Of a DNA stretch of 64,000 nt, positions 28,746-45,565 are shown piece by piece; within the stretch, counting starts at the first letter, position 1; each line of letters begins with the position of its first letter. Below the pieces are notes generated by a model, which had not been told where the DNA came from, searched no databases, and worked only from the letters and a program-made list of their open reading frames with translations. The translations under genes were made by a program, and so were the position numbers. Source of the stretch: Pseudoxanthomonas winnipegensis (GTDB lineage Bacteria > Pseudomonadota > Gammaproteobacteria > Xanthomonadales > Xanthomonadaceae). The DNA lies in the NCBI RefSeq assembly GCF_004283755.1, contig NZ_SHMH01000004.1, forward strand, positions 186,001-250,000. Direction: 5' to 3'.

Positions 28746-31151
28746 ATGCGTAGCTCCAAGAGTAGGCCGGCACGAGGCAGTCTGGCGTTGGCGGTGTCCC
28801 TCGTCGTCCTCGGTATGTCCCTGGGCCGGCCGGTCCTGGCGGCGGACGCGCCGGCCGAGGAGCCGGCCGCTCCGGCCGATCAGACCGGCACCAAGCAGCT
28901 GTCCACCGTCACCGTCACCGCCGAGCGGCGCAGCGTGGACCAGCAGAAGGCGCCGCTGTCGGTCAGCACGATCTCGGCCGAGCAGCTGGACCAGGCCAAC
29001 ATCAACGACGTCACCGGGTTGAACGGCAGCGTGCCCGGTCTGGTGGTGGCCAGGAGCGGCGGCGCCGAGCGGGTGATGTCGATCCGCGGCATCGGCTCGG
29101 AGACGCCGGAGAACACCAACACCCAGCCCGGCGTGTCGCTGCACGTGGACGGGGTGTACATCTTCAACTCGATCGCCGCCAACGCCGCCTTCATCGACCC
29201 GGCCCAGGTCGAGGTGCTGCGCGGCCCGCAGGGCACCATGTTCGGCCAGGGTTCCACCGGCGGCACCGTCAACGTGGTCAGCAAGCAGCCCGAGCTGGGC
29301 TACCTGGGCGGACAGGTCAAGCTGGGCGTGGGCAACTACGATCTGACCAAGAGCAATGCTTCAATCAACCTGCCGGTGGGCCAGACCTTCGCCGTGCGCG
29401 TGGCCGGGCAGGAGTACCGCCACGACGGCTACGCCAAGCTGACCGACGTCTACGGCAAGTACGGCTACCAGGCCGATCAGGCCGACGACCTGGGCGGCAA
29501 GATCATGGCGCTGTGGAAGCCCAGCGACAGCTTCGAGGCGACCCTGAGCGCGATCACCTACCGGAGCGACACCAACGCCCCGGCGCAGAAGAACATCCTG
29601 GACCCGATCGCCAATCCGCGCGTGATCAGCTCGGACTATCCGGGCATCTCGGTGGTCGACTTCGACCTGTACTCGGCGGTCCTCAAGTGGAACCTGGACT
29701 GGGCCACCTTCAAGTCGATCTCCGCCTACCAGAAGCTGCATTCCAACCAGTCCTGGGACTCTGACGCCCTCACCGCCAAGCTGTTCTGGGCGCAGACCTA
29801 CAGCCCGCTGACCTATAGCGGCTACACGTACGACCACACGGCGAAGTGGCAGAGCGACGTCAAGTCCTACTCGCAGGAGTTCAATCTGGCCTCCAATGGC
29901 GATGGCAGGTTCCAGTGGATCACCGGCGCGGTGTTCCTGAAGTCCACCAACAAGCAATACATCGTCGAGTACCGCGGCAGCGACACCAATCTGGTCCGCC
30001 CAGCGATTCCGGCCGACACCGCGTGGAACGCGCCCGAGGTGGCCAAGGTCACCTACGCCGACCTGGAGGAGTACACCCGCCGCTCCGGGGCCGCCTATTT
30101 CCAGGGCACCTACGCGCTGACCGACAAGCTCAGCCTCACCGCAGGCGCACGCTACAACGCCGACAAGTACGAGGGCGAGGCCAACAGCATGAGCGGTGGC
30201 GCCTCCAAGTGGACCTCCGGTCCCTACCTGCAGCCGCAGACCGCGCCCGGCTACAAGAGCAACGAGACCACCGGCAAGCTCTCGCTGGATTACCAGTTCA
30301 CGCCGGCCAGCCTGGGCTATCTGAGCTTCACCCGCGGCTACAAGCCCGGTGGGCTCAACGGCTCGTCCACGGCCAATGGCGCCGCCGCGGTGATCGGGCC
30401 GCACTACCTGCCCGAGACGGTCAACGCCTTCGAGGTCGGCAGCAAGAACCGGTTCCTGGACAACTCGCTGCAGCTCAACGCGTCCTCGTTTCTGTACGAC
30501 TACAAGAACATGCAGTTCCTCAACGAGGACCCCATGCTGTACGGCGAGGGCACCAGCAATGCCCCCAGCGCCAGGATCTATGGCCTGGAGCTGGAGAGCA
30601 AATGGCTGGCCACGCAGAACTGGCGCTTCGACGCATCCCTGGCGCTGCTGCACGGCAAGTTCAACAAGGACTACGAGGCGCTGGACCCGGCCTCGGCCTC
30701 GGCGGCCCAGATCGCCGCCGGCTACCCGGGCTGGCTGTACTGGGCGAATTTCGCCGCCGCCGTCGCCGCGCGCGCGAGCGCCTCGCAGAACATCAACGGC
30801 AACACCGTGCCCAAGATCCCCGGCTTCCAGGGCAACGTCAGCGCGACCTATACCAATGAGATCGGCAGCGGGCTGTTCACCGCCAGGGCCGAGCTGCTGC
30901 ACCGGGGCTCCTACCAGTACCGGCTCTACAACAATGCCGCCGACGACAAGGTGCCGTCCTACGACCAGGTCAACCTGTTCCTCAGCTACGCGCCGGACGA
31001 CTCGCACTGGGACTACGCGCTGTCGGTGACCAACCTGCAGAACCGCAACGGGGTGAACTCGCGCTTCAGCGACCCCTACGGCAGCGCCCAGGTCACCCAG
31101 ACCTTCATCGCCCCGCGGCAGTACATCTTCTCGGTGCAGTATTCGTTCTGA
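28746..31151 (+). CDS. TonB-dependent outer membrane receptor of the catabolic island
   Basis: 801 aa. The signal peptide ends near VLAAD (about residue 32). A short TonB-box-like stretch STVTVTAERR precedes the plug domain (about 50-165: KAPLSVSTISAEQLDQ, VMSIRGIGSE, VEVLRGPQGTMFGQGSTGGT), then a beta barrel ending in Phe (FSVQYSF). GAGG lies 10 bases before the ATG. It lies between the VanB-type reductase and a TfdA-type dioxygenase on the same strand, so it probably imports the pathway substrate across the outer membrane rather than iron. The ligand is inferred only. Confidence 0.88.
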   Translation: MRSSKSRPARGSLALAVSLVVLGMSLGRPVLAADAPAEEPAAPADQTGTKQLSTVTVTAERRSVDQQKAPLSVSTISAEQLDQANINDVTGLNGSVPGLVVARSGGAERVMSIRGIGSETPENTNTQPGVSLHVDGVYIFNSIAANAAFIDPAQVEVLRGPQGTMFGQGSTGGTVNVVSKQPELGYLGGQVKLGVGNYDLTKSNASINLPVGQTFAVRVAGQEYRHDGYAKLTDVYGKYGYQADQADDLGGKIMALWKPSDSFEATLSAITYRSDTNAPAQKNILDPIANPRVISSDYPGISVVDFDLYSAVLKWNLDWATFKSISAYQKLHSNQSWDSDALTAKLFWAQTYSPLTYSGYTYDHTAKWQSDVKSYSQEFNLASNGDGRFQWITGAVFLKSTNKQYIVEYRGSDTNLVRPAIPADTAWNAPEVAKVTYADLEEYTRRSGAAYFQGTYALTDKLSLTAGARYNADKYEGEANSMSGGASKWTSGPYLQPQTAPGYKSNETTGKLSLDYQFTPASLGYLSFTRGYKPGGLNGSSTANGAAAVIGPHYLPETVNAFEVGSKNRFLDNSLQLNASSFLYDYKNMQFLNEDPMLYGEGTSNAPSARIYGLELESKWLATQNWRFDASLALLHGKFNKDYEALDPASASAAQIAAGYPGWLYWANFAAAVAARASASQNINGNTVPKIPGFQGNVSATYTNEIGSGLFTARAELLHRGSYQYRLYNNAADDKVPSYDQVNLFLSYAPDDSHWDYALSVTNLQNRNGVNSRFSDPYGSAQVTQTFIAPRQYIFSVQYSF

Positions 31152-31266
31152 TCCGGCCGCCCAGCCGGCGCGGGCAACGATCCGTGCATCTGGGCGCAAG
31201 CCGTCCAGGTGCGCGGGAGGGACACTGCCACTTCAGATGCCGACGTATCGACCCCGCGAGCGTGCC

Positions 31267-32355
31267 ATGACCGAAATCCTCGAGCTTGAACCCGTCACCA
31301 CCGAGGCCGCCTGGCGTGGCGATGTGCTTGCCACCCGCGCCGAATGGATCTACCTGCTCTCCGATGCCCAGGTGGCCGAGCTGGAGGCGCTGGGCACGCG
31401 CCTGGTGGAGGACGATCCGGACCTGCGTCTGGTCCAGGCTGCCGACTATCCGCTGGACGCCTGCGCCGGCGCGGTAGCCTCCTGGGGGCGCGATATCGAT
31501 ACCGGGCGCGGCTTCGTGCTGGTGCGCGGCCTGCGCACCCATCTGTACTCGGACGCGCTGTCGGCGGCGATCTACTACATCCTGGGCCTGCACCTGGGCG
31601 AGCCGATGCGGCAGAACCGGCTGGGCGACCTGGTCGGCCACGTCTACGCGACCTCGGACAAGACGCTGGACGATCCCACCGCGCTGTCGGCCAGCATCCG
31701 CGACGCGCTGCCGTTCCACTCGGACAGCTCGGACGTGGTGGCGCTGATGTGCCTGCGGCCGTCCAAGCAGGGCGGCGCCTCGTGCCTGGTCTCCGGCGCG
31801 CAGATCTACAACGAGATCCTCAAGCGCCGCCCGGACCTGGCGCCGCTGCTGTTCGAGCCGTTCCACTGGGACTGGAAGCGCCAGGACCACAACGCCCCGG
31901 CCAACACCTACACCTCGCCGATCATCGACCTGACCGACGGGGTCTTCAGCATGTATGCCGGCGCGCTTTACATCTTCACCGCGCAGGACTACCCGGAAGT
32001 GCCGCGGCTGAGCCCACAGCAGATCGAGCTGCTCAAGCTGTTCGACGACATCACCTACGAGCCGGGCATGGCCATCGAGATGGATTTCCGCCCGGGCGAT
32101 ATCCAGTGGCTGTCCAACTACGCCGCGCTGCACTCGCGCACCTTCTTCAGCGACTACGAGGAGCCGCAGCGCCGGCGCCACCTGCTGCGGCTGTGGCTGC
32201 GCCGCACGGGCGATCGGCCGGTGATCGACGGCTTCGGCAAGAACGCGGTGGTCGAGGACCGGGCCAGCATCGCCAATCCCGACGGCGTTGGCGGCAGCGA
32301 GGGCGGCCGCTTCCGGATCGGGATCGCCGCGGTGCCCAGGGTGGAAGGCGTGTGA
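31267..32355 (+). CDS. TauD/TfdA-family Fe(II)/2-oxoglutarate dioxygenase
   Basis: 362 aa from the ATG at 31267 (an in-frame ATG lies 30 bases upstream). The 2-His-1-carboxylate site is visible: H151-x-D153 (PFHSDSSD) and distal H289 (YAALHSRTFF), with the Arg-rich RRRHLLRLWLRR supplying the 2-oxoglutarate Arg. It is longer than typical TauD (about 280) and resembles the larger TauD/TfdA-like proteins. Reaction class: oxidative hydroxylation or cleavage coupled to 2-oxoglutarate decarboxylation. Directly downstream of the TonB receptor gene, so the imported ligand is the likely substrate. Confidence 0.85.
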   Translation: MTEILELEPVTTEAAWRGDVLATRAEWIYLLSDAQVAELEALGTRLVEDDPDLRLVQAADYPLDACAGAVASWGRDIDTGRGFVLVRGLRTHLYSDALSAAIYYILGLHLGEPMRQNRLGDLVGHVYATSDKTLDDPTALSASIRDALPFHSDSSDVVALMCLRPSKQGGASCLVSGAQIYNEILKRRPDLAPLLFEPFHWDWKRQDHNAPANTYTSPIIDLTDGVFSMYAGALYIFTAQDYPEVPRLSPQQIELLKLFDDITYEPGMAIEMDFRPGDIQWLSNYAALHSRTFFSDYEEPQRRRHLLRLWLRRTGDRPVIDGFGKNAVVEDRASIANPDGVGGSEGGRFRIGIAAVPRVEGV

Positions 32356-32564: not shown

Positions 32565-33095
32565 TCAGGAAGCGTCCTGGAAATGGCCGAACCGGCCGCG
32601 ATGGAACAGCAGCGGTTCGCCGGGATGTTCCTGGATGTGCTGGACGCGGCCGATGACGATGCTGTGATCGCCGGCCGGGACGATGCGCTCGGTCGCGCAT
32701 TCGAAGCGCACCAGGCAGCCGGACAGCAGCGGCACGCCGTGGGCGTTGTCCACCACCGCCAGGCCGGCGAAGCGATCCTGCGCGGACTGCTGGAACTGCC
32801 GGCTCAGCGCGCGCTGGTGTTCGCCCAGGACGTGGATGGCGAAGTGGCCGACCTCCCCGGCGAACCGATCGTGGCTGCGCGAGCTGCAGGCGATGCTCCA
32901 CAGCAGCAGCGCCGGCTGCAGCGACAGCGAGGCCAGGCTGTTGATGGTCATGCCCAGGCGCTGGTCGTCGCTGCCGCGGGCGGTGACGATGGCCACGCCG
33001 GTGGCGAAATGCCCGAACGCGTCGCGCAGGCGGCGGGCATCGAACGGGGATTCCTGCGTTTCGGGCGCGGGCAGGGCGGCGGCTTGTGCACTCAT
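32565..33095 (-). CDS. Flavin reductase family protein (RutF/HpaC-like)
   Basis: 176 aa, the standard size for the short-chain flavin reductases that supply free FMNH2/FADH2 to two-component monooxygenases. Seen: DAFGHFATGVAIVTARG, GMTINSLASLSLQPALLLWS, FAIHVLGEHQ and the closing FHRGRFGHF. No monooxygenase is adjacent, but the RutA-like LLM monooxygenase at 44191-45318 needs such a partner. On the same strand as the AraC-amidase fusion, 110 bases downstream of it, so co-transcription is possible. Confidence 0.87.
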   Translation of the reverse strand: MSAQAAALPAPETQESPFDARRLRDAFGHFATGVAIVTARGSDDQRLGMTINSLASLSLQPALLLWSIACSSRSHDRFAGEVGHFAIHVLGEHQRALSRQFQQSAQDRFAGLAVVDNAHGVPLLSGCLVRFECATERIVPAGDHSIVIGRVQHIQEHPGEPLLFHRGRFGHFQDAS

Positions 33096-33205: not shown

Positions 33206-35554
33206 CTACGGCGTGGGACGTGCCGAGGCGGCCTCCTCGGTGAAGATCTCCTTGCGCAGGATGCCGTGGACGCACCAGTTGCCGTCCACTACCTGGGTCA
33301 CGCCGAAGTCCACCGCCACCGAGATCAGCGACAGCGCCTCGTCCTCGCTCAGGCCCTTGTAGGTCATCAGGAAGCGGCGCATCTTGCGGAAGGCGTCCTT
33401 CATCGCCAGGTCCAGCGAGGATTTCTTGTAGATCTCGCTCTGCGCCTTCTCGCCCAGCTCGGCCAGGTAGTTGGCGTAGCTGAAGCCGTGGATCACCCAC
33501 TCGTCGCGGGTCTCCAGCAGGGGATAGTTGAGGTCGAAGTAGGGCTTGCCCGGCAGGTCGCGCCGCTTGTGCAGCACCAGCTGGAACAGCCCGGTCATCG
33601 AGCACTCGATGGCCGTGCCGCACAGCTCCGAGTCGCCCTGCGAGGCGTGCGGATCGCCCACCGAGAACAGCGCGCCGGCCACGCTGACCGGCAGGTACAG
33701 CGTGGCGCCCTTGCCGGCACGCTTGTTGTCGATGTTGCCGCCGAAGTAGGAGGGCGGGATGGAATCGACCATCTCCGCCTCGCGCGGGGCTACGGCCAGC
33801 ACGCCGAAGTGCGGCTGCACGGGCACCCGCACGTTGCGCAGGATGTCGTGGTTCTCCACCACCGTGCGGTGATCCACCGGCACGCCGGGATAGTCGATGG
33901 TGTGGTGGACCACGCCGAAGGGATCGGTCTGCGGAGTCCAGCGGAAGTTGTAGACGGCGCGCGCGTACTGCTTCTGGGTGCCCCAGTCCAACTCGTAGAT
34001 CGTGATGACCTCGCGCTGCTTGGGCTCGGTCAGCATCTCGTCGTAGTGGAATCCCCACCAGGTGGCCGCGTTGCTGCCATAGGTGTGGCTATGGAAGCGC
34101 GGGTCGGCCGCGGCGCGCGGCGTGACGTCGAGAATGCGGATCTCCAGCACGTCGCCCGGCTCGGCGCCGCGCACGGCCACCGGTCCGGTGCATACATGCA
34201 CGCCGAAGCCCTCGCCGGCGCCGCGCCCGTAGATCGAGGCGTCCGCCGGGCCGGAGCCGCGGCGATCCACGTTCTTGCCCTGCGCGGTCCAGTGGAACAC
34301 GCTTTCGGCGCCCGGATCGTCCTTGATCATGCGGTCGTAGTCGTCGTAGGCGTGGTGGGTGAGGGTCTCGATGGCGACCGTGTCGCCCGAGTCCACCTCC
34401 AGCACCGGCTTGAGGGCGGAGCTGAAGTAGCCCCAGTGCACGGTCTGCGCGTTGACCGGCAGGTAGTGCAGATGCGGGTTGACCGCGCTGGCGGTCGGCA
34501 GGCCGGGCGGGCTGGCCGGCGGGCTGGGCCTGGCCTTGAGGTTCTTGGCGGCTTCCTCGTTGAGTTCCGGCCAGCCGCGGCTGAAGCGGCTCAGCAGGTC
34601 CTCGGACAGCGCCTCGCTGATCTCGCGCCGGTAGCGGCGCGGCGAGACCCCGTACTGCTCCTTGAACGCGCGGCTGAAATGGGCCGAGTCGTTGAAGCTC
34701 CAGCGAAAGCAGATGTCCGAGATCGACAGCTTGGCGTAGAGCGGATTGATCAGGTCGGCGCGACATCGCTCCAGCCGGCGCACGCGGACGTAGTGGCTGA
34801 AGTTGTCGTTGGCCGACTCGAACAGCTTCTGCAGATAGCGCGGAGAGACTCCGGCCTGCTGCGCGATCTGGCCGATGCTCAGGTCGGCCTCGGTCAGGCG
34901 CGCCTCGATCAGCTGGCTGATCCGGTGCAGCAGCGCGGTCTGGGTGCTGGTCGAGCCGGTGATGGCGTTGGCGAACTCGTCGTCGGTCAGGCTGGTGATC
35001 AGCAGCTCGGACAGCGAGGTCTCGATCGGCCGCAACTGGTCCGGGCCGAGGTCCTGGATGGTGTCGGCCACCGCGCCCAGCAGGCCGGAGAACACGTGGC
35101 CGATGCCCGAATGCCCGGACAGCACGCCCATGCGCGAGGACAGCGGGATCGGCAGGCGCGCGCGGAACACCGAGCGCGGGATCCGCACCAGCAGGTGGCG
35201 GAAGTTGCTCTGCAGGGCGATGGTGCCGACCGCGTCGGCGATGTTGTAGACGATGTCGCCGGGGCGCAGGCGGGTCTGGTGGGTGCGGTCGAGCAGCGAG
35301 GCCGTTCCTTCCACGTGCAGGGCCAGCTGGATCGAGCCGGCCTGGACAGGGTCCTTGTAGAAGATCTCCTGCGGGCAGGAGGACACCAGCGAAAAGCTCA
35401 TCCCCTGCTGCGATTCGAGCGTGGTCAGGGTGCCGAACAGCTGCGGGGCGGTGATGCGCGTGCGCACCGAGATCCGTTCCAGCGCCTGCTGCCAGGCCTC
35501 CTGGCGATGGCTGGAAGGGTAGGACTCGGCGGTGAAGAAGGACGGCTTGGTCAA
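33206..35554 (-). CDS. Fusion protein: AraC-type regulator plus acetamidase/formamidase domain
   Basis: About 782 aa from a proposed TTG start at 35554. Residues about 1-165 are an AraC-binding-like sensor domain (SSHRQEAWQQALERISV, LRPGDIVYNIADA). Residues about 205-310 are a two-unit AraC DNA-binding domain (SIGQIAQQAGVSPRYLQKLF; SDICFRWSFNDSAHFSRAF then YGVSPRRYR). After a Pro-rich linker (about 325-350), residues about 360-775 are a full FmdA/AmdA amidase domain: QTVHWGYF, GVHVCTGPVAVRGAEPGD, YFGGNIDNK, LFSVGDPHASQGDSELCGTA, FGVTQVVDG. The frame is uninterrupted through the junction. A GTG at 35644 is an alternative start; the ATG at 35836 lies upstream of the probable promoter. Likely an amide-hydrolysing protein that also controls neighbouring genes; the coupling of the two roles is inference. 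Confidence 0.85.
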   Translation of the reverse strand: MTKPSFFTAESYPSSHRQEAWQQALERISVRTRITAPQLFGTLTTLESQQGMSFSLVSSCPQEIFYKDPVQAGSIQLALHVEGTASLLDRTHQTRLRPGDIVYNIADAVGTIALQSNFRHLLVRIPRSVFRARLPIPLSSRMGVLSGHSGIGHVFSGLLGAVADTIQDLGPDQLRPIETSLSELLITSLTDDEFANAITGSTSTQTALLHRISQLIEARLTEADLSIGQIAQQAGVSPRYLQKLFESANDNFSHYVRVRRLERCRADLINPLYAKLSISDICFRWSFNDSAHFSRAFKEQYGVSPRRYRREISEALSEDLLSRFSRGWPELNEEAAKNLKARPSPPASPPGLPTASAVNPHLHYLPVNAQTVHWGYFSSALKPVLEVDSGDTVAIETLTHHAYDDYDRMIKDDPGAESVFHWTAQGKNVDRRGSGPADASIYGRGAGEGFGVHVCTGPVAVRGAEPGDVLEIRILDVTPRAAADPRFHSHTYGSNAATWWGFHYDEMLTEPKQREVITIYELDWGTQKQYARAVYNFRWTPQTDPFGVVHHTIDYPGVPVDHRTVVENHDILRNVRVPVQPHFGVLAVAPREAEMVDSIPPSYFGGNIDNKRAGKGATLYLPVSVAGALFSVGDPHASQGDSELCGTAIECSMTGLFQLVLHKRRDLPGKPYFDLNYPLLETRDEWVIHGFSYANYLAELGEKAQSEIYKKSSLDLAMKDAFRKMRRFLMTYKGLSEDEALSLISVAVDFGVTQVVDGNWCVHGILRKEIFTEEAASARPTP

Positions 35555-35884
35555 GGCGGCGATGCCATCGGTTCCCGAACGTGGAAGGACACCGCCGGAA
35601 TGGTTGTCGGGCCCGATGGCCCTGTCTTCGCCGCGACCACGCACAGGCCGCCGCGGCCGGCACCTGTCGTACGTCGTTGTCCCTAGCGGCGCAACCAAAC
35701 CCGCGGTTTGCTGCACATGCACAATCGAGATATACAGCCCGGCGAGCGCTGTCAAGCGCCCGGTCTCCGCCGGCCTGAAGCGGCCAAGGAATAGGGCGCA
35801 CCCGCGCAAGATGACCGACGCGCCGCTCCGCACCATCGGAGCATCGGCGTCGGGTGGCGCGACACATCCTCAAGGTGACACGGC
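35555..35884. other. Divergent intergenic region between AraC-amidase and TauD genes
   Basis: 330 bases if the TTG start is right. It holds the minus-strand promoter above and the TauD leader. Self-regulation by the AraC part of the fusion would be expected to act here. No paired AraC site could be defined by eye. Confidence 0.5.
35727..35755 (-). promoter_or_regulatory. Promoter of the AraC-amidase fusion gene
   Basis: On the minus strand a perfect TTGACA (35755-35750), a 17-base spacer, and TATCTC (35732-35727). The predicted transcript starts near 35720. That rules out the most upstream ATG (35836) and leaves a 75- to 165-base leader for the GTG or TTG starts. Confidence 0.6.
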
Positions 35885-36697
35885 ATGTACAGGCATATCC
35901 AGGTCAGCCCCTGCACGGCGCGCATCGGCGCGGAGATCTCGGGGGTGGACCTGACCGCCGCGCTGGGGCCGGAGCAGGTGGAGGAGATCCGGCGCGCGCT
36001 GCTCCAGTTCGGCGTGATCTTCTTCCGCGACCAGCCGATGGGCCACGAGGACCATATGCGTTTCGGCCGCTGCTTCGGCGAGCTGATCGTCCACCCCGGC
36101 GCGCCCGGCATCGAGGGGTTTCCGCTGATCGTGGCCATCCACGGCGATGCCAACTCCACCTATGTGGCCGGCGAGCAGTGGCATTCGGACCTGTCGTGCA
36201 ACGCCGAGCCGCCGATGGGCAGCATCCTGTACCTGCATACGGTGCCGCCGGTGGGCGGGGATACGCTGTGGGCGGACATGTACTCGGCCTACGAGGCCTT
36301 GCCCGAGCGGATGAAGGCCTATCTGGACGGCCTGACCGCGCAGCACGATGCCAACCACGTCTACCACGCGCTGTACCACGACTACGACAAGGCCTATCCG
36401 CGCAACGACCACCCGGTGGTGATCACCCATCCGGAGAGCGGGCGCAAGGCGCTGTTCTTCAACCCGCAGTACGTCTCGCACTTCAACGGCGTCTCGGACG
36501 CGGAAAGCCGGATGCTGTACGACTTCCTGACCGCGCACTGCGCCGATGCCCGGTTCCAGGTGCGCTTCCGTTGGCGGCCGCATTCGGTGGCGTTCTGGGA
36601 CAACCGCTGTACCCACCACCTGGCCATCTGGGACTACTACCCGCAGACCCGGTCGGGCTTCCGGGTGACGCTCAAGGGGGAGCGACCGACGTTCTGA
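35885..36697 (+). CDS. TauD-type Fe(II)/2-oxoglutarate dioxygenase
   Basis: 270 aa, the normal TauD length. The iron site is H100-x-D102 (QWHSDLS) and H245 (NRCTHHLAIWDYYP). The C-terminal Arg of RSGFRVTLKG fits the 2-oxoglutarate carboxylate contact. TauD relatives oxidise sulfonates, aryloxyacetates or N-alkyl compounds, releasing sulfite, phenol or amine (family knowledge). AAGGT lies about 9 bases before the ATG. Divergent from the AraC-amidase gene and leading a probable +-strand unit with the SDR and cysteine hydrolase genes. Confidence 0.9.
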   Translation: MYRHIQVSPCTARIGAEISGVDLTAALGPEQVEEIRRALLQFGVIFFRDQPMGHEDHMRFGRCFGELIVHPGAPGIEGFPLIVAIHGDANSTYVAGEQWHSDLSCNAEPPMGSILYLHTVPPVGGDTLWADMYSAYEALPERMKAYLDGLTAQHDANHVYHALYHDYDKAYPRNDHPVVITHPESGRKALFFNPQYVSHFNGVSDAESRMLYDFLTAHCADARFQVRFRWRPHSVAFWDNRCTHHLAIWDYYPQTRSGFRVTLKGERPTF

Positions 36698-36782: not shown

Positions 36783-37655
36783 ATGTCCAGCCACGACACC
36801 AACACATCGACCGCGCCCCAGGTCTGGCTGATCACCGGCGCCGGCTCGGGCCTGGGCCGCGCCCTGGTGGACGCCGTGCTGGCGCGTGGACATTGCGTGG
36901 CCGGAACCGTGCGCCGCCCGGCCGACGCGCAGGCGCTGGAGGCCCTGGCACCGGGCCGGGTCATGGCGCTGCGCCTGGACGTGACCGACACCGAGGGCGT
37001 GCGCACCGTGGTGGCGGCGGTGGAGGCCCGCTTCGGGCGCATCGACGTGCTGGTGAACAACGCCGGCTATGGCCTGGTGGCCGGGGTCGAGGAGGCCAGC
37101 CTGGACGAGGCGCGGGCGCAGTTCGAGGTCAACGTGTTAGGCGCGCTGGCGATGATGCAGGCGGTCCTGCCGGCGATGCGCCGCCGCCACGCCGGCACGC
37201 TGGTCAACATCACCTCGGTCTCCGGCCTGGTCGGCTGGCCCAGCCTGGGCATCTACTCGGGCAGCAAGTTCGCCCTGGAGGGCATCAGCGAGACGCTGGC
37301 GCAGGAGGTGGCGGGCCTGGGCATCCGGGTGATGATGGTGGAACCGGGCGGCTTGCGTACCGATTTCGCCGGACGCTCGCGGGTGCGGGCCACGCAGGTC
37401 ATCGCCGATCCCGGTTACCTCGACGGCGCGCTGGGCGCGTGCAAGCGCACGCTGGACGAACACGCCGGCCACGAGCGCGGCGATCCTGCGCGCGCCGCCG
37501 CGGCCATCTGCCAGGCGGTGGAAGCCGAGGCGCCGCCGCTGCGGCTGCTGCTGGGCGCCGACGCGCTGGGCTATGTGTTGGGCAAGCAGGCCGACCAGCA
37601 GGCCGAACTGGCGCGCTGGCTGGCGCTGACGACCTCGACGGATCACGTGCCGTGA
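36783..37655 (+). CDS. Short-chain dehydrogenase/reductase
   Basis: 290 aa, classical SDR. Cofactor motif TGAGSGLG (about 18-25), NNAGYG near residue 90, catalytic Y158-x-x-x-K162 (IYSGSKFALEG) with the Ser of ITSVSG about 13 residues before. The acidic/basic pattern after strand 2 (TVRRPADAQ) favours NADP(H). AAGGA is 8 bases before the ATG. 85 bases after the TauD gene, same strand. The substrate is not readable; oxidation or reduction of an alcohol or aldehyde intermediate is the family role. Confidence 0.9.
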   Translation: MSSHDTNTSTAPQVWLITGAGSGLGRALVDAVLARGHCVAGTVRRPADAQALEALAPGRVMALRLDVTDTEGVRTVVAAVEARFGRIDVLVNNAGYGLVAGVEEASLDEARAQFEVNVLGALAMMQAVLPAMRRRHAGTLVNITSVSGLVGWPSLGIYSGSKFALEGISETLAQEVAGLGIRVMMVEPGGLRTDFAGRSRVRATQVIADPGYLDGALGACKRTLDEHAGHERGDPARAAAAICQAVEAEAPPLRLLLGADALGYVLGKQADQQAELARWLALTTSTDHVP

Positions 37656-37773
37656 GCCGCATCGCATCCGCAATCGGGATGGCGCCGCGATGCCCGGGCA
37701 AGTCATTCGCGGTCGCGCGTCCGGAGAGGCGCGAGGCGATCGCCCTCGCACCGTTCCCGACCCGGTAGCCGCC

Positions 37774-38454
37774 GTGCATCGCATCGAGCTTCCCGACTGG
37801 GCCATGGCGCGGGGTCGCCCGATCCAGGCGCTGGATCGCCTGGATCCGGCGCGCACCGCGCTGGTGGGCATCGACATGCAGCAGGCCTTCATCGCGGAAG
37901 GTCAGGTGTTCGCCAATCCGCATGCGTTGGACATCATCGGCAACGTCAACCGCCTGGCCCGCGCCTGCCGCGCGGCGGGCGTCGGGGTGTGGTGGACCCG
38001 GCAGACGGTGGACGAAGACGATCCACACCGCGCCGACCCGCACTGGCGGCGGTTGGCGGGCGATGCCGCGGTGGACGCCGCCAAGGCGGCGCTGCGCGCC
38101 GGTTCGTCGGGCCATGCCCTGCATCCGGACATCGCGCTGGATCAGGCCGACGCGGTGATCGACAAGTTCCGCTACAGCGCCTTCCTGCCCGGCTTCTGCG
38201 ACCTGCATGCGCGGCTGCAGGCGCGTGGCGTGGACACCCTGATCATCGCCGGCACCCTGACCAACTGCTGCTGCGAGAGCAGCGCGCGCGATGCCTTCAT
38301 GCTGGGCTACCGGGTGCTGTTCGCCGCCGACGCCACGGCCGCCGTCACCGACGCCGAGCACAACGCGGCGCTGCTGAACCTGGCGGTGCTGTTCGCCGAC
38401 GTGCGCGGCACCGAGGAGATCATCGCGCTGCTGGCCAGGGCCCCGGGGCGGTAG
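37774..38454 (+). CDS. Cysteine hydrolase, isochorismatase superfamily (RutB-like)
   Basis: 226 aa from a GTG at 37774, whose product (HRIELPDWAMARGRP) resembles RutB-type N-termini; an ATG at 37690 is the alternative. The Asp-Lys-Cys triad is visible: D34 (VGIDMQQAF), K131 (IDKFRYSAF) and the nucleophile in GTLTNCCCES, where C166 aligns with the catalytic Cys of RutB (TNVCVES). The family hydrolyses amides such as ureidoacrylate, nicotinamide, maleamate and N-carbamoylsarcosine. The Cys is flanked by two more Cys, which is uncommon. Located after the TauD and SDR genes on the same strand. Confidence 0.85.
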   Translation: MHRIELPDWAMARGRPIQALDRLDPARTALVGIDMQQAFIAEGQVFANPHALDIIGNVNRLARACRAAGVGVWWTRQTVDEDDPHRADPHWRRLAGDAAVDAAKAALRAGSSGHALHPDIALDQADAVIDKFRYSAFLPGFCDLHARLQARGVDTLIIAGTLTNCCCESSARDAFMLGYRVLFAADATAAVTDAEHNAALLNLAVLFADVRGTEEIIALLARAPGR

Positions 38455-38503: not shown

Positions 38504-39835
38504 TCAGCCGGGCTGTCCGCTGCGATGGCGGCCGCACAGCGCCAGCGCGGTCAGGGCGTACAGCTCGGTGCACTGGTACAGGTCCTCGATGCTCGGCAGC
38601 CAGCGCACCGGGCCAAGGGTGACCGCGGGGACGCGGTTCATGTTGAACACGTTGTGGTCGCGCCACATGCTGGAGAACACCGGATGGCCCACCTGGACCG
38701 GCCCGCCGCGGACCTGCTGGTGAGCCAGGTCGATGGCCTGGCGCAGCGGTTGCACCGCCTGCGGGTCGGCCTCGAAGCCGGTGCGCACGGCATAGGGCTC
38801 CACCTCGCAGTCGTCGATGCCGGCGGCGCGCAGCACGCGTTTCAGTTCGCGGTCCACATCGCCGACGCGCTGACGCGGTCCGGTGATGATCTCCAGATAG
38901 AGCGAGCAGGCTTCGCTGCTGGCGCCGATGGCCTGCGGATTGCCGCCGCGGATCGCGCCGATCTGGACCTTGGGCACCACCGTGCCGCCGCCGGGGCTGT
39001 GATAGGTGTGCTCGACTTCGTAGCGCGCGGCCCAGGCGGTGATCGCGGCGATGGCCTGGCCCATGCGCACGATCGGGTTGTCGCGCGGGGTGCGGGCGTG
39101 TTCCAGGATCGGGGTGAAGATCGCCTCCCCGTACAGGGTGATGCGGTAGTAGCAATAGCCGCAGGCGGCCCAGTTCAGGCCGAAGTCGGTGCCCTCTGCG
39201 GCGATGGCGAAATCCGGCGCCACCCCGCCGTGGGCCAGCAGATAGGCCGCGCCCAGTTCGCGCCCGGTGTGGGCGATGCCTTCGTGGCCTTCGGTGGGTT
39301 CGGGCTCCGGTCCGATCTCGCCCGGGCAGGCGGTCAGGTACAGCGTGCCGTCCAGTTCGATTCCGGCGCGCTTGAGCGCGGTGGCCGCCAGCAGGAAACA
39401 GGCCATCGGGCCGCGGTCGTTGGCCACTGCGTAGCCGTGGAAGCGCTCGCCCTCCAGCCAGGCCTCCAGCCACTCGCGCCGGTCCACGCCGCCGGGCCGG
39501 TAGGTGTGCCGGTCCACCGCCGAGTAGAACGGACTCTCGGTGTCCAGGTGGCTGGTGAACAGCAGGTTGGGGCCGTCGCCGTGCCCGCCGTAGCGGCCGA
39601 CCACGTTGAACCGGTCCTCCACCAGGCCGACCTTGCGCGGCGCGAAGCCTTCCTCGCGCATCCAGGCGTGCACGTACTCGCCGGCCGCGCGCTCGCCGCG
39701 CATCGGGCTGGGGATGTTGCACAGCTCCAGGATGCGCTGGACCAGTTCGTCACGGTCGATGCCGCGGCGGATCGCCTCGCGCTCCTGCGCGGTGACCTGG
39801 TGGCAGGCCGGAAAGGGCGGGGGGCAAGACGTCAT
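38504..39835 (-). CDS. M20 family metallo-amidohydrolase/peptidase
   Basis: 443 aa. Metal site elements of the ArgE/DapE/CPG2 family: H96-x-D98 (TSHLDTES), AVANDRGPMACF with the bridging Asp, CPGEIGPEP acidic pair region, and late HNVFNMN. The lid domain lies in about 210-330. The family cleaves amide bonds of N-acyl or N-carbamoyl amino acids with two zinc ions. Its ATG directly abuts the TGA of the MFS gene, and GGAG of the MFS 3' end serves as ribosome site, so the two are one operon: uptake followed by amide cleavage. Confidence 0.87.
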   Translation of the reverse strand: MTSCPPPFPACHQVTAQEREAIRRGIDRDELVQRILELCNIPSPMRGERAAGEYVHAWMREEGFAPRKVGLVEDRFNVVGRYGGHGDGPNLLFTSHLDTESPFYSAVDRHTYRPGGVDRREWLEAWLEGERFHGYAVANDRGPMACFLLAATALKRAGIELDGTLYLTACPGEIGPEPEPTEGHEGIAHTGRELGAAYLLAHGGVAPDFAIAAEGTDFGLNWAACGYCYYRITLYGEAIFTPILEHARTPRDNPIVRMGQAIAAITAWAARYEVEHTYHSPGGGTVVPKVQIGAIRGGNPQAIGASSEACSLYLEIITGPRQRVGDVDRELKRVLRAAGIDDCEVEPYAVRTGFEADPQAVQPLRQAIDLAHQQVRGGPVQVGHPVFSSMWRDHNVFNMNRVPAVTLGPVRWLPSIEDLYQCTELYALTALALCGRHRSGQPG

Positions 39836-41131
39836 TCATTCCACTCCGGAGGCCAGGCGCAGCGGCGCGGCGTCCGGGGCGGCCGGCGGGTCTTCGGCGC
39901 GCTCTCGCACCTGGTCGTCGCGCGTCTGCGGCGGGCGCAGGAACAGCCAGGTCGACAGCGTGACCAGGGCCAGCAGCCCGGCGAAGACCGCGTACAGCGG
40001 CGTGTAGCGGCCCAGATGGTCGGCGACCACGCCGGCCGCCCAGGGCCCGACCACGGCCACGGTGGTCATCATCGTGGCCATGGCCACCATCGTGCCGGAG
40101 ATGGCGCTGCCGAAGTAACGCAGGATCAGCACGTGGGCGCACAGCCAGCTCAGGCCCCAGCCGACGCCGAACAGCAGCGCGAAGACGAACGCGGCCCAGG
40201 CCGTGGGCACCGCCGCCAGCAGGACGAAGCCGACGCATTGCAGGCTCAGCCCCAGGATCAGCAGCCCGCGGGAGTCGCGGCGCTCGGCGATGCGCCCGGC
40301 CACGCCCTTGGTGATGGTGCCGCTCAGGGCCAGCATGCTCATCGCCAGGGCGCCGGCGGTCTGGCTGGCGTTGACGAAGGTCAGCTGGGTCACCAGGGTC
40401 GAGTGCATGGTGGTCACCACCGTCTGCACCACCATCATCGCCAGGGCGATGACCGCGAACTGCCGGCTGCTCAGCGCCTGCGGCACGGTCCAGGCCGTGG
40501 GCGCGGGCACCTGCGCCTGCGGCTCCAGCGACGCCCCGGCGTTGCGGACCTCCTCGACCGAGCGGATGCGCGCCACGTCGCGCACGCACGCCAGACAGAC
40601 CACGGCCAGCACGACCGCCGCGGCGGCGATGATCCGCCAGTAGGTCTGCCAGTCCCCGCTCAGCGCCACGATGGCGCGCACCGCCGGCGGACCGACCACG
40701 CCGCCGAAGGCGCCGATCATGAAGTAGTAGCCCATCATCCGCGCGCAGTTATGCGGGAACCAGTTGGCCAGCAGGTACACCGCCGGCGCTGGCGCCAGCA
40801 GGGTGAAGCCCACGCCCATCAGGCTGGTGCTGAAGAAGAACAGCCCGATCCCCTGCGAGACCGAGGCCAGCGCGAAGCCCGCCGCCAGCACCAGCGCGCC
40901 GATGCACATGGTCCAGCGCGAGCCGATCCATTTCATGGTCAGGGCCGGCAGCGGACTGGACAGGCCGCAGGCCAGGCCCAGCAGGGAGAAGCTGAAGCCG
41001 GCGGCCGCCTGCGACCAGTGCAGCTGGCCGACCATGGTGTAGAGCACCACCGCCAGCGAGGTGAACGTCGTGGCGGTCACGAAGAAGAAAGCCAGCGAAA
41101 CCGCCAGCATGATCGCGTGTCTGCGCTGCAT
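39836..41131 (-). CDS. MFS transporter
   Basis: 431 aa from the ATG at 41131 (AGGA 8 bases upstream). Two blocks of about six hydrophobic helices are joined by a soluble loop (about residues 185-215, RDVARIRSVEEV). Features: FSFSLLGLACGLSSPL in helix 2, FSTSLMGVGFTLLAPAPA, and C-terminal half ALFGVGWGLSWLCAHVLILRYFG. It resembles the oxalate/formate or monocarboxylate-type MFS carriers; the substrate is probably an organic acid or amide of the island pathway. Operonic with the M20 hydrolase gene. Confidence 0.88.
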   Translation of the reverse strand: MQRRHAIMLAVSLAFFFVTATTFTSLAVVLYTMVGQLHWSQAAAGFSFSLLGLACGLSSPLPALTMKWIGSRWTMCIGALVLAAGFALASVSQGIGLFFFSTSLMGVGFTLLAPAPAVYLLANWFPHNCARMMGYYFMIGAFGGVVGPPAVRAIVALSGDWQTYWRIIAAAAVVLAVVCLACVRDVARIRSVEEVRNAGASLEPQAQVPAPTAWTVPQALSSRQFAVIALAMMVVQTVVTTMHSTLVTQLTFVNASQTAGALAMSMLALSGTITKGVAGRIAERRDSRGLLILGLSLQCVGFVLLAAVPTAWAAFVFALLFGVGWGLSWLCAHVLILRYFGSAISGTMVAMATMMTTVAVVGPWAAGVVADHLGRYTPLYAVFAGLLALVTLSTWLFLRPPQTRDDQVRERAEDPPAAPDAAPLRLASGVE

Positions 41132-41476
41132 CTGCGGAGTCCTGCGTACGCGTTTGGGGGGAGGGGGCACCGCCGGGCACGGCAGGCCAGGACACAGTGT
41201 GGCCCGGGCCGTTGTCCATCTTGATCGGCCGCGCCCTAAAAGTTGCTTGGAGGTCGATCCGCCTGCGTTCGCGTGCGCGCCCGAAGGTGAACCCGGCCGG
41301 CGAAGGCCGTCGAGCCATCGTGCGGACCGGCCGTGGGACGGTGATTGAGGACACGCGCGAGTGCGCCTGCGATCAATCCGGCCGGCGAGCTTTGTCCTAG
41401 CATCCTGCAGGCACCGCGCGTGCAACACGCGCCGTCATCCGCCGCCACGCACGACCCAGCCCAGCCGGAGCCTCGC
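41132..41476. promoter_or_regulatory. Divergent control region of the MFS-M20 and Rieske units
   Basis: 345 bases with no supported gene. It contains CATCTTGATCGG (41217-41228); CTTGATCGG recurs in the LLM/amidase divergent region (45399) and upstream of the 26327 gene (26201). Promoters for both directions must lie here, but no clear -35/-10 pair stands out. Confidence 0.5.
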
Positions 41477-42679
41477 ATGAAAGACGGTTTTCGCAACGAC
41501 GCATTCTTCGACAGCATGGAGAGCTCGATCCTGCCGGTGGAGATGGCCGAATCGCTGCCGCCGCTGTGCTACACCGACCGGGACTTCTACGAGTTCGAGA
41601 AGGACGCCCTGTTCGCTCGGGAATGGCTGTGCGTGGGGCGCGAATCCTGGGCTGCCAAGCCGGGCGACTACTTCACCACCGCCATCGTCGACGAGCCGAT
41701 CGTGGTGGTCCGCGACCGCGACGGCCAGCTGCGGGCGATGTCCTCGGTGTGCCAGCACCGGGCCATGCTGGTGGCCGAGGGCGCCGGCAATACGCGCACC
41801 TTCACCTGTCCCTACCACCACTGGGTCTACGGCCTGGACGGCCGCCTGCGCGGCGCCCCGGCGATGGAGCGCACCTGCCAGTTCCAGAAGGAGGACATCC
41901 GCCTGCCCAACTTTCGCCTGGAGACCTGGCAGGGTTTCGTCTTCATCAACTTCGACGACAACGCCGCGCCGCTGGCGCCGCGCCTGAAGCACCTGGATCC
42001 GATCCTGGCCGGGTATGGCATTCCCGAAGCCGAGGGTCCGGCGCCCGAGATCGGCACGCCGTATCCGTTCAACTGGAAGGTGATGTTCGAGAACAACAAC
42101 GACGGTTATCACGCCAACCGCCTGCACCATGGCGAGTTCCACGACTACGTGCCCAGCGAGCTGGCCTGGTTCCCCGACGACCTGCCGGCCGAGACCGCCG
42201 GCTACTACCGGCTCAACGGCACCCTGCACCGCGATGCCAGCTTCAACCCGACCCAGCGCGCCCTGATGCCGGTGTTCGCCGGGCTGTCGGAGCAGGAGCG
42301 CGACCGCATGGCCTTCGCCAACCTGCCGCCGACCCTGTCGCTGGTGCTGACCGCCGACGCGGTGATCTATCTGATCCTGCGCGCGGACGGCCCGGAGAGC
42401 CACAAGCTGGACCTGGGCATCTTGTTCGCGCCCGGCGCGCTGCAGGACCCGGAGTTCGACCGCAAGATGGAGCAGATCATGGAGCGCGCCCTGCAGATCA
42501 ATGCCCAGGACGTGCACGTGGACGAGCTGGTGCAGGTGGGCCTGCGCTCGCGCTTCGCCCCGCGCGGGCGCTACTCCTGGCAGGAGGGCGCGCAGCGCCA
42601 GTTCAACACCTGGCTGGTGCCGCGCTACCGCGCCTGCTGGGAGCGCATGAAGCAGGCGCGCGCCGCGGTGGCCGCATGA
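41477..42679 (+). CDS. Rieske non-heme iron oxygenase, alpha subunit
   Basis: 400 aa. Rieske [2Fe-2S] ligands C92-x-H94 and C111-x2-H114 (CQH ... CPYH). The mononuclear iron site is in NNNDGYHANRLHH, with H212 and H217 as ligands and D209 as the electron bridge. N-terminal Rieske domain about 40-150, catalytic domain 170-400. The ATG at 41477 has GGAG 7 bases upstream. No small (beta) subunit gene is present, as in alpha-only O- or N-demethylases and carnitine-type oxygenases. Electrons would come from a VanB-type reductase such as 27550-28521. It overlaps the next gene by ATGA. Confidence 0.92.
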   Translation: MKDGFRNDAFFDSMESSILPVEMAESLPPLCYTDRDFYEFEKDALFAREWLCVGRESWAAKPGDYFTTAIVDEPIVVVRDRDGQLRAMSSVCQHRAMLVAEGAGNTRTFTCPYHHWVYGLDGRLRGAPAMERTCQFQKEDIRLPNFRLETWQGFVFINFDDNAAPLAPRLKHLDPILAGYGIPEAEGPAPEIGTPYPFNWKVMFENNNDGYHANRLHHGEFHDYVPSELAWFPDDLPAETAGYYRLNGTLHRDASFNPTQRALMPVFAGLSEQERDRMAFANLPPTLSLVLTADAVIYLILRADGPESHKLDLGILFAPGALQDPEFDRKMEQIMERALQINAQDVHVDELVQVGLRSRFAPRGRYSWQEGAQRQFNTWLVPRYRACWERMKQARAAVAA

Positions 42680-43467
42680 GCCAGGCGCCGCGCATGCCGA
42701 TGGTGTTCTTCGGCCACGGCAGCCCGATGAACGCGCTCGAGGACAGCGCGCTGACCCGGGTCTGGCGAGACATGGGCCGCACGCTGCCGCGGCCGAAGGC
42801 CATCCTGTGCGTGTCGGCGCACTGGCTCACCCGCGGCACCGCCGTGACCTCGACCGAGGCGCCGCGCACCATCCACGACTTCGGCGCCTTCCCGCAGGCC
42901 TTGTTCGACGTGCGCTATCCGGCGCCGGGCAGCCCGTCGCTGGCCGCGCGGGTCGCCGACCTGCTGGCGCCGCGCCAGGTGTTCGCCGACCAGGGCCAGT
43001 GGGGCCTGGACCACGGCACCTGGTCGGTGCTGGTGCATGCCTATCCCGAGGCCTCGGTGCCGGTGGTGCAGCTGAGCATGGACGCGGGCATCGACCCGGC
43101 CGAGCGCTACGCCATCGGCCAGCGCCTGGCGCCGCTGCGCGAGGAAGGCGTGCTGATCGTCGGCACCGGCAACGTGGTCCACAACCTGCCGCGGATGAAC
43201 TGGTCGTCGGCCGATGCCCCGGCCTACCCGTGGGCGCAGCGTTTCCATGACTACATCGGCGATGCCGTGCGCCAGGACCGGCCGCAGGCGGTGATCGACT
43301 TCGCATCGCAGGGCGAGGACGCGCGGCTGTCGGCGCCGACCCCGGACCACTTCTGGCCGCTGCTGTACGTGCTGGGTGCGCGCGCGGCCGGCGAGCCTGT
43401 GCGCATGGAGAACGACTTCATCCAGCACGCCTCGCTGGGCATGACCTCGATGGTGTTCGGCGGCTAG
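42676..43467 (+). CDS. ygiD: DODA/YgiD-type extradiol ring-cleavage dioxygenase family protein
   Basis: 263 aa. LigB/class III fold with the metal His pattern of 4,5-DOPA dioxygenases: GHGSPMNAL (H14), SAHWLTRG (H49), GTGNVVHNL and the C-terminal HASLGMTSM. It starts at 42676, overlapping the Rieske oxygenase stop (ATGA), so the two proteins are translationally coupled. The pairing suggests the Rieske enzyme produces a catechol-like or dihydroxylated ring that this enzyme opens. Chromosomal ygiD copies usually stand alone, so the coupling is notable. Confidence 0.85.
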   Translation: MSQAPRMPMVFFGHGSPMNALEDSALTRVWRDMGRTLPRPKAILCVSAHWLTRGTAVTSTEAPRTIHDFGAFPQALFDVRYPAPGSPSLAARVADLLAPRQVFADQGQWGLDHGTWSVLVHAYPEASVPVVQLSMDAGIDPAERYAIGQRLAPLREEGVLIVGTGNVVHNLPRMNWSSADAPAYPWAQRFHDYIGDAVRQDRPQAVIDFASQGEDARLSAPTPDHFWPLLYVLGARAAGEPVRMENDFIQHASLGMTSMVFGG

Positions 43468-43516: not shown

Positions 43517-44194
43517 CTAGGATCCCGCCTGCCAGACTTGGAGCACCGCCGCGGTGTCCACCAGCAGCGCGCAGTTCCTGGCCAGGGCATCGAGCGTGGA
43601 CAGGTGCAGCGCCGGCTCGTAGGCCGCGCTGGCATCGGCGACCACGAAGACGCTGAAGTCGCGGTGGAAGGCGTCGCGCACGGTGCAATCGACGCAGCAC
43701 TCGGTGGAGAAGCCGCACACCACCAGCGTGTCGATGCCGCGTGCGCGTAGCTGCGTTTCGAAATCGGTCCCGTGGAAGCTGGAATACAGCGGCTTGCGTA
43801 CCTCGATGTCGCCGGTCGCCGGGGCGATGCGGTAGTAGTCCACGCCCGGGGTGCCGGCCCGGCACAGCTCCAGCGCTTCGGGCGGCAGGCCCTGGCGCGC
43901 ATAGAACAGGCGCAGTGCGCGGCTGTCGGTGGCCCGCTCGGTGACCACCCGGGCCAGGGCGACGGTGACAGCGGCCGCGCGCGCCGCCGCGATGAGCCGC
44001 TCGATCCGGGCCAGCGGCGCCTGCAGCGGCGCCATGTCCACACCGGCCTGGCCCAGCGCGCCATCGGCGGCGACGAAGTCGCGTTGCACATCGATCACCA
44101 CCAGCGCGGTGCGCGTCGGCTCCAGCATCGATCCCAGGCGCGCCGCCTCGACCAGCGGCGCCGGCCAGGCCGGCGTGTCGGCCGGTGGGCTCAC
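43517..44194 (-). CDS. Second isochorismatase-family cysteine hydrolase (RutB-like)
   Basis: 225 aa from a GTG at 44194. Triad: LVVIDVQRDF (Asp), VRKPLYSSF (Lys) and GFSTECCVDCT (nucleophile C167, next to C166). The GTG overlaps the TGA of the LLM monooxygenase gene by four bases (GTGA), the same coupled order as rutA-rutB in E. coli. Likely hydrolyses the amide or ureido product of that monooxygenase. It is clearly distinct in sequence from the first copy at 37774. Confidence 0.85.
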   Translation of the reverse strand: MSPPADTPAWPAPLVEAARLGSMLEPTRTALVVIDVQRDFVAADGALGQAGVDMAPLQAPLARIERLIAAARAAAVTVALARVVTERATDSRALRLFYARQGLPPEALELCRAGTPGVDYYRIAPATGDIEVRKPLYSSFHGTDFETQLRARGIDTLVVCGFSTECCVDCTVRDAFHRDFSVFVVADASAAYEPALHLSTLDALARNCALLVDTAAVLQVWQAGS

Positions 44195-45318: not shown

Positions 45319-45565
45319 GCTGGCCGCGTCCGGAAGGAAGTGCCCGTCAGCGTGCGCGCCGGCGCCCCGCGCCGGCTTGAGCGGCGGCGTCAAATCTCTT
45401 GATCGGTCACGACGCGCCCGGGCCGTGCCGACCGTGGCCGTCCAACTATTGATGCGTGGCTGGGCAAGATCGCCGCGATGCCCGCTCGGCAGACTCATCG
45501 GCAATGCAGAGGCGCCGGACCTCCCCGTCGTCCTCCGCAGCGAACCCGAACCCAAGGAGCCCACG
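45319..45565. promoter_or_regulatory. Divergent control region of LLM and amidase units
   Basis: 247 bases between two divergent starts. It contains TCTTGATCGG at 45397-45406, shared with the 41.2 kb divergent region, and a strong Shine-Dalgarno for the amidase. Confidence 0.45.

What the first reader, a model, noticed from the sequence alone, without database searches (positions are those of the whole stretch)
33206..35554. AraC-type regulator fused to an acetamidase/formamidase domain in one polypeptide
The reading frame runs without a stop from an AraC-binding-like sensor domain and a complete two-unit AraC HTH through a Pro-rich linker into a full FmdA/AmdA amidase. In the families I know, these are separate proteins. 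Such a protein could sense its substrate by hydrolysing it, or bind DNA according to amide availability (a one-polypeptide trigger enzyme). It is divergent from a TauD gene and sits amid amide- and ring-cleaving genes, so it may be the island's regulator. The paralogous unfused amidase at 45566 shows that the amidase part is a normal family member that was joined to a regulator.
Basis: partly seen in the sequence, partly recalled or inferred. Interest (0 to 1): 0.88.

Follow-up and report, generated by a model that had tools for sequence, protein, structure and literature searches.

The report
Gene regulator fused to amide-cutting enzyme
One protein joins a gene-switching regulator to an apparently working amide-cutting enzyme; the join is real and shared by many soil bacteria, but what it does has not been tested here and I found no study of it.

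Summary
Window 33206-35554(-) is one open frame of 782 aa: FeaR-like AraC sensor, two-part AraC helix-turn-helix, disordered linker (327-358) and a full-length large-type FmdA/AmdA amidase. It is not an assembly accident: a second species keeps the frame at 92-93% identity (dN/dS 0.06 HTH, 0.10 amidase, 0.65 linker), and 80 of 80 kept GTDB loci have both halves in one frame. Amidase halves of fusions group together in a tree (support 84, not decisive), so one origin is likely. Of 71 positions conserved in unfused and distant relatives, 53 are kept in at least 95% of 62 fusions, including the GGN-D and H-Q-D-E motifs; 18 have drifted, and Y621 is L in every fusion. It is probably an active enzyme, perhaps with altered specificity. 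In 69 of 79 loci an unfused paralogue lies beside it, mostly with an ABC transporter. The window has a rarer context: an island of ring- and amide-cleaving genes in which other bacteria carry an AraC-only relative, or both forms. Best reading: a bifunctional island regulator and amidase. A true trigger enzyme is possible and untested. Searches of the held papers found no description. New variant of a known kind.

The parts
33206..35554 (-). AraC-FmdA/AmdA fusion, 782 aa, TTG start
34955..35554 (-). N-terminal FeaR-like sensor (residues about 1-200; AraC_binding_2 75-186)
   Evidence: FeaR NCBIfam 123.9 bits, below its cut-off 199; dN/dS 0.158 against L013
34595..34954 (-). AraC DNA-binding region (residues about 201-320; HTH_18 230-310)
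   Evidence: dN/dS 0.058; R239, K243, R259, R260, F293, S294 invariant in 74 aligned fusions
34481..34576 (-). linker, residues 327-358, predicted disordered
   Evidence: pLDDT under 50; dN/dS 0.648 for 321-360
33206..34480 (-). large-type FmdA/AmdA amidase (residues 359-782)
   Evidence: 3b9t, 660.8 bits, TM 0.92 by target length; 53 of 71 conserved positions kept in at least 95% of 62 fusions
35555..35884 (.). divergent intergenic region between the fusion and TauD; blocks conserved with P. spadix, including TTGTGCAnGTGCAGCAAACC at 35705-35724 (-)
   Evidence: no consensus sigma-70 site by the scan
35885..36697 (+). TauD/TfdA-type dioxygenase, divergent neighbour
36783..37655 (+). short-chain dehydrogenase
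37690..38454 (+). isochorismatase-type hydrolase (RutB/biuret hydrolase-like, below cut-offs)
38504..39835 (-). M20-type hydrolase (Pfam score just below cut-off)
39836..41428 (-). MFS transporter (open frame; true start probably later)
41345..42679 (+). Rieske ring-hydroxylating oxygenase alpha subunit
42676..43467 (+). LigB/DODA-type extradiol dioxygenase
   Evidence: relatives in L015, L139-L141 at 60-65%
43517..45109 (-). open frame whose C-terminal part is a second isochorismatase-type hydrolase
44191..45726 (-). open frame holding an LLM (luciferase-like) monooxygenase
   Evidence: its L015 relative (63%) is RutA-like, 266.8 bits, below cut-off
45200..46633 (+). unfused FmdA/AmdA amidase (frame; protein probably starts near 45566), 38% identical to the fused domain
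31237..32355 (+). second TauD-type dioxygenase
32565..33095 (-). flavin reductase
28746..31151 (+). TonB-dependent receptor
48432..49388 (-). ribokinase-like PfkB kinase

Best explanation
It is a bifunctional regulator-enzyme. The AraC half (cupin-type sensor plus two-part HTH) binds near its own gene and the neighbouring catabolic genes and, like other AraC-type proteins, most likely activates them when a pathway compound is bound. The C-terminal half is a working, cytoplasmic FmdA/AmdA amidase that hydrolyses an amide of the same pathway. Joining the two keeps enzyme and switch at a fixed 1:1 ratio and, if the sensed compound is the amidase's substrate (or product), makes induction self-limiting (or self-starting). 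Shown here: the fusion, its spread, both halves under purifying selection, linkage to amide and ring-cleaving genes, AraC-only relatives in the same islands. Inferred: activation, target promoters, inducer, catalysis.
For: Both halves under purifying selection while the linker is loose (sensor 0.158, HTH 0.058, linker 0.648, amidase 0.10; one species pair). Of 71 polar, Gly or Trp positions chosen without looking at fusions (at least 90% of 30 unfused large-type amidases and the same in 3 distant ones), 53 are kept in at least 95% of 62 fusions and 40 in all 62; H401, D404, H582, G605, G606, D609, H636, Q639, D641 and E681 are kept in 62 of 62, N607 in 61, E643 in 60. Model: AraC half like CuxR/ToxT/Rns, amidase like 3b9t. 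Linkage: of 79 loci, 69 have an unfused amidase within 600 bp, 68 a long ABC permease-ATPase protein within 5 kb, 62 a binding protein within 6 kb, 53 RidA within 1.5 kb (49 of the 79 are Bradyrhizobium). Dihydropyrimidinase near the fusion on Paraburkholderia pBN1. In G408, G908, G958 and G978 an AraC-only relative sits beside the island's FmdA.
Against: No experiment. 18 of the 71 conserved positions are below 95% in fusions, some far below (H400 60%, W611 53%, D523 48%, Y621 0%), and the window's copy itself departs at four of these 18 (580, 611, 621, 761), one next to the GGN-D motif; activity or specificity may have changed. No paper naming the catalytic residues turned up in the listings searched. 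No binding site was established: the conserved upstream block occurs once in the window within 3 mismatches, so not at the 41.2 or 45.4 kb promoters. The window lacks the close unfused amidase, ABC protein and RidA of the common context. Whether sensor ligand and amidase substrate are linked is unknown.
Confidence: 0.46

Rival explanations
1. True trigger enzyme: occupation or turnover in the amidase active site changes DNA binding of the AraC half, so the amidase is the real sensor.
For: L621 is fixed in 62 of 62 fusions and in 3 fusion fragments, where 30 of 30 unfused large-type and 3 of 3 distant amidases have Y: a change tied to the fusion. Across distant fusions the amidase half is more conserved than the regulator half (61-100% against 28-100% identity to the window in 79 loci plus the window; 67-99% against 41-99% in 120 proteins).
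Against: Between window and P. spadix the HTH part is the better kept one, so the conservation contrast is not uniform. AraC-only relatives in the same islands persist without the amidase; the fusion keeps its own AraC sensor; linker disordered and relative position of the halves undefined in the model (pTM 0.58). L also occurs at this place in the distant amidase 2ii1 (alignment).
Confidence: 0.23
2. Two independent jobs on one chain: fusion only couples dosage; no regulatory link between the halves (possibly even split after translation).
For: Disordered, fast-evolving linker; AraC-only forms exist.
Against: The fusion is kept over Alpha-, Beta- and Gammaproteobacteria with only a few AraC-only offshoots seen (for the amidase side).
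Confidence: 0.18
3. The amidase half is a catalytically silent ligand-binding or oligomerisation scaffold for the regulator.
For: An unfused amidase usually lies next door (69 of 79), making a second enzyme partly redundant; 18 of 71 conserved positions have drifted in fusions.
Against: The GGN-D, H-Q-D-E and other motif residues are kept in 60-62 of 62 fusions; amidase dN/dS is 0.10; in the window no close unfused amidase exists.
Confidence: 0.11
4. Assembly or gene-calling artefact.
For: None found.
Against: Same frame in independent assemblies of many species and 14 of 17 matching plasmid records covering at least 80%.
Confidence: 0.01

Closest known systems
FmdA/AmdA amidases, large type (3b9t of Methylobacillus flagellatus; Pfam PF03069)
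   Same: Fold and main conserved motifs; 66% identity over 414 columns in the structural match
   Different: 3b9t is named a twin-arginine (exported) signal protein; the fused form carries an AraC regulator at that end and should be cytoplasmic (inference); L621 instead of Y
FeaR-type AraC/XylS regulators
   Same: Sensor and HTH layout; best NCBIfam match of the N half, 123.9 bits over residues 17-312
   Different: Below the FeaR cut-off of 199; carries a C-terminal enzyme
Trigger enzymes such as PutA and BirA (recalled; one search gave only a listing)
   Same: One polypeptide with an enzyme and a DNA-binding part
   Different: Different enzyme and HTH families; coupling not shown here
JGI name 'acetamidase/formamidase/AraC-like DNA-binding protein'
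   Same: Automatic name for this architecture
   Different: A label only; no function tested

Membership tests
FmdA/AmdA amidase family (PF03069) | Pfam score over curated cut-off, full length | tested here: met
   111 bits against 27; 3b9t aligned to residues 359-772
FmdA/AmdA amidase family (PF03069) | Conserved positions of unfused and distant members kept | tested here: inconclusive
   53 of 71 kept in at least 95% of 62 fusions, 40 in all; 18 below, Y621 in none; the window departs at 580, 611, 621, 761 among the 18. The first count had listed only positions already kept in fusions and was replaced.
FmdA/AmdA amidase family (PF03069) | Amide hydrolysis | not testable with these tools
   needs assay
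Formamidase FmdA equivalog (NF045496) | Score over 500 bits | tested here: not met
   64.1 bits
AraC/XylS regulators | Two-part AraC HTH over cut-off | tested here: met
   HTH_18 74.1 against 33.6; HTH_AraC 61 against 26.6
AraC/XylS regulators | AraC_binding_2 sensor over cut-off | tested here: met
   27.5 against 27, marginal; fold matches CuxR, ToxT, Rns and the AraC dimerisation domain
FeaR equivalog (NF007243) | Score over 199 bits | tested here: not met
   123.9 bits
Trigger enzymes | Same polypeptide catalyses and controls transcription | not testable with these tools
   both modules present and conserved, functions unmeasured
Trigger enzymes | DNA binding depends on substrate state of the enzyme part | not testable with these tools
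   needs binding assays with and without amide

The most novel reading that the evidence does not exclude
The fusion co-assembles, through its amidase half, with the unfused amidase encoded next to it in most loci seen (median 60% identical in 69 loci), forming a mixed enzyme-regulator complex; amide occupancy of that complex, not of the AraC sensor alone, sets transcription of the transporter-amidase operon. The change Y621L, shared by every fusion examined, would mark the sensing form. This would be a trigger enzyme of a new type, in which a catabolic enzyme is carried to the promoter by a fused paralogue. In the window, which lacks the close paralogue, the fused amidase would act as a homo-oligomer.
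Probability: 0.1. Interest if true: 0.78.

Novelty: new variant of a known kind. Interest (0 to 1): 0.5.

Why it matters
A widespread, apparently undescribed regulator-enzyme fusion gives a compact test of how metabolic enzymes become sensors: fused, AraC-only and amidase-only versions exist side by side in nature, sometimes in one island, so the effect of covalent coupling can be measured directly. It would also point to the regulator of amide and N-heterocycle catabolic operons in rhizobia and related soil bacteria.

Tried and rejected
Assembly or frameshift artefact: rejected. The 45.5 kb amidase as parent of the fused domain: rejected. Island as a riboflavin pathway (idea from the ribokinase and LLM genes): not supported; the published gene set (PMC12746152; abstract, outline and passages seen) uses a P450 and a xanthine oxidase, and the L015 LLM protein resembles RutA (219.8 bits) more than riboflavin lyase (78.7 bits). 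Shared binding motif: TTGTGCAnGTGCAGCAAACC was found only at its own place in the window; its half GTGCAGCAAAC within one mismatch twice, as chance would give. Alignment of upstream regions of 16 rhizobial-type fusions showed a conserved block near the start in most (tggcac...gttgc), not followed up. Promoter scan: nothing.

Literature (full text of the held open-access library only): searches with AraC plus amidase or fusion words gave 0 papers, or lists whose titles and abstracts do not mention this fusion (one search listed 12 of 49, among them PMC8636025, which holds 'AraC family' and amidase words and was not opened). The library cannot be searched for the slash form 'acetamidase/formamidase', so may have missed papers. 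PMC10781810 (section 5 part 1 and passages), PMC13209695 and PMC12746152 (passages) hold no 'AraC' in the main text; PMC12421990 was seen in passages without that term being asked.

A count I withdrew: one search listed only amidase positions that were already kept in at least 95% of fusions, so it could not show loss; one search repeats it with positions chosen from unfused proteins. After that I lowered the best explanation from 0.50 to 0.46 and raised the silent-scaffold rival from 0.08 to 0.11 and the trigger rival from 0.22 to 0.23.

Rows dropped before counts: L066 is missing from the neighbourhood tables because the simple ORF picker missed its fusion (79 of 80). In the tree, L084 and L014 (long branches) were left out; also six AraC rows that look like broken, truncated or oddly ended proteins (P0242, P0245, P0247, P0248, P0253, P0267), and also P0250. 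Only the best 80 of 147 loci and the best 120 of 2375, 6080 and 1213 proteins could be seen; trees used one row per similarity group.

Full report
What is there. Window 33206-35554 on the minus strand encodes 782 aa in one frame. The TTG start is preferred to the upstream ATG (35836), because the L013 copy of Pseudoxanthomonas spadix has a TTG at the same place and the stretch upstream carries insertions and deletions between the two. Pfam finds AraC_binding_2, HTH_18, HTH_AraC and FmdA_AmdA in order. The N half resembles FeaR best (123.9 bits, below the 199 cut-off); the C half is not the curated formamidase FmdA (64.1 against 500) but the large type solved as 3b9t. An AlphaFold2 model on 74 fusions has mean pLDDT 81.5 and pTM 0.58, with residues 327-358 under 50. 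Foldseek finds 3b9t for the amidase (TM 0.92 by target) and CuxR, ToxT, Rns and the AraC dimerisation domain for the regulator. The relative placing of the halves is not known.

It is real and under selection. Against L013 (92-93% identical in both halves), dN/dS by Nei-Gojobori is 0.158 for the sensor, 0.058 for the HTH region, 0.648 for the linker and 0.10 for the amidase. Of 2375 proteins with E up to 1e-20 (7996 candidates scored) the best 120 were shown; all 120 carry HTH_18 and FmdA_AmdA. A scan of GTDB genomes gave 147 relatives, of which the best 80 were kept; 80 of 80 have both halves in one frame, with L019 cut by its contig end and L080 stopping inside the amidase. Fourteen of 17 matching plasmid records hold at least 80% of the query; I opened three of these (H1, H6, H9) and one of the partial ones (H16), whose whole gene proves to be a full fusion with a divergent sensor (Pfam run on H1, H6 and H16).

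Distribution. The fusion is rare near home: 2 of 37 genomes of the window's genus (G000-G036), 1 of 369 of its class (the window's own), 7 of 398 of its phylum (matches spanning both halves). Named holders are mostly Bradyrhizobium and other rhizobia, with Burkholderiales, Sphingomonas, Nevskia and Pseudoxanthomonas. The genome itself is unnamed; its nearest named relative in this gene is Pseudoxanthomonas.

Origin. In a tree of 98 amidase domains the 62 fusions group with three short rows (support of that fork 84, not starred): P0122 on a 1.5 kb contig, P0123 labelled partial, and P0190, a near copy of the amidase half of fusion P0063. These three also share the fusion-specific L621. So a single joining event is likely, not proven. 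In trees of the AraC half, AraC-only proteins fall in one clade beside Sphingomonas-type fusions (99) and in two further places inside fusions (P0289, P0311); holding all 17 tested together is rejected (p-AU 3e-24, group named after seeing the tree). With distant outgroups, one of which fell inside the group, the root lies among the fusions. This suggests loss of the amidase half several times, but these are quick trees and the root is weak.

Active site. I chose 71 polar, Gly or Trp positions from unfused proteins only: at least 90% of 30 large-type amidases and identical in three distant ones. In 62 fusions 53 of them are kept in at least 95%, 40 in all. The motif residues GGN605-607, D609, H636, Q639, D641, E643, E681, H401, D404 and H582 are kept in 60-62 of 62. 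Eighteen are below 95%: mild for most, strong for H400 (60%), W611 (53%), D523 (48%), G761 (42%) and Y621 (0%). The window's copy departs at 580, 611, 621 and 761 among these. L621 is in 62 of 62 fusions and Y in 30 of 30 unfused and 3 of 3 distant proteins. The likely meaning is an active enzyme with changed substrate range, but a changed role cannot be excluded. Which residues are catalytic is inferred from conservation.

Two contexts. Common context, 79 of 80 loci tabulated: 69 have an unfused amidase (at least 55% identical to the window's domain) within 600 bp, 68 a long ABC permease-ATPase protein within 5 kb, 62 a family-3 binding protein within 6 kb, 53 RidA within 1.5 kb (families). 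Forty-nine of the 79 are Bradyrhizobium, so these counts are not independent; most of the set recurs in Comamonadaceae, Rhodopseudomonas, Tardiphaga and Aurantimonas and, by annotation, in Neorhizobium, Rhizobium and, without RidA, Paraburkholderia FT54. Identity between fused domain and neighbour in the same locus: median 60%, range 55-63%, 69 loci. On Paraburkholderia pBN1 the fusion lies by a smaller amidase, with dihydropyrimidinase, FmdB and DUF3830 genes close by.

Window context: TauD, SDR, isochorismatase, M20, MFS, Rieske, DODA, LLM, second amidase, ribokinase, flavin reductase, TonB receptor. In G408, G958, G908 and one island of G978 the regulator beside the second amidase is an AraC-only protein. 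In G821, G907, G897 and another island of G978 a fusion and an AraC-only relative lie together, their AraC parts 3.7-6.7 kb apart. This is the best evidence that the AraC half is the island's regulator and that the amidase half is an addition, not a need, for regulation. G908's AraC is almost the same as a protein named Phenylobacterium (P0316), so that group is probably Caulobacterales.

Mechanism. I favour a bifunctional protein: AraC-type activation of the neighbouring genes plus hydrolysis of a pathway amide by the fused enzyme. If the sensor binds the amide, the enzyme next to it shuts induction off as the substrate is used; if it binds the product, the enzyme starts induction. A trigger enzyme in the strict sense is possible; the fixed L621 is its only specific hint. 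No binding site was shown: the block conserved upstream of the gene does not recur in the window.

Known or new. The architecture is named by automatic annotation. The searches of held open-access papers showed no description of it (limits told under Tried and rejected). A review of formamidases (PMC10781810; section 5 part 1 and passages seen) has no 'AraC' in its main text. It is a new variant of a known kind: an enzyme-bearing transcription regulator.

Noticed in passing
   Followed up: partly
L135, L136, L137, L138: Fused and AraC-only versions of the regulator occur in one island, AraC parts 3.7-6.7 kb apart.
   Followed up: partly
window residue 621 of the fusion, and all fusions: Y621 of unfused amidases is L in 62 of 62 fusions and 3 of 3 fragments; meaning unknown.
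   Followed up: partly
L084 7929-10331: A very divergent fusion (long branches in both trees) lies divergently from a large-type unfused amidase of 482 aa.
   Followed up: no
L036 (record titled Frankia sp. RB7): Carries the fusion operon at about 50% identity to the window like the Bradyrhizobium loci; the organism name may be wrong.
   Followed up: no
upstream of fusions in L022, L024, L030 and others: A short block, tggcac...gttgc, is conserved near the fusion start in most of 16 aligned rhizobial-type regions; possibly a regulatory or ribosome-binding feature.
   Followed up: no
P0063/P0190/P0267: Near-identical set of one whole fusion and two halves, perhaps a recently broken fusion gene.
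   Followed up: no
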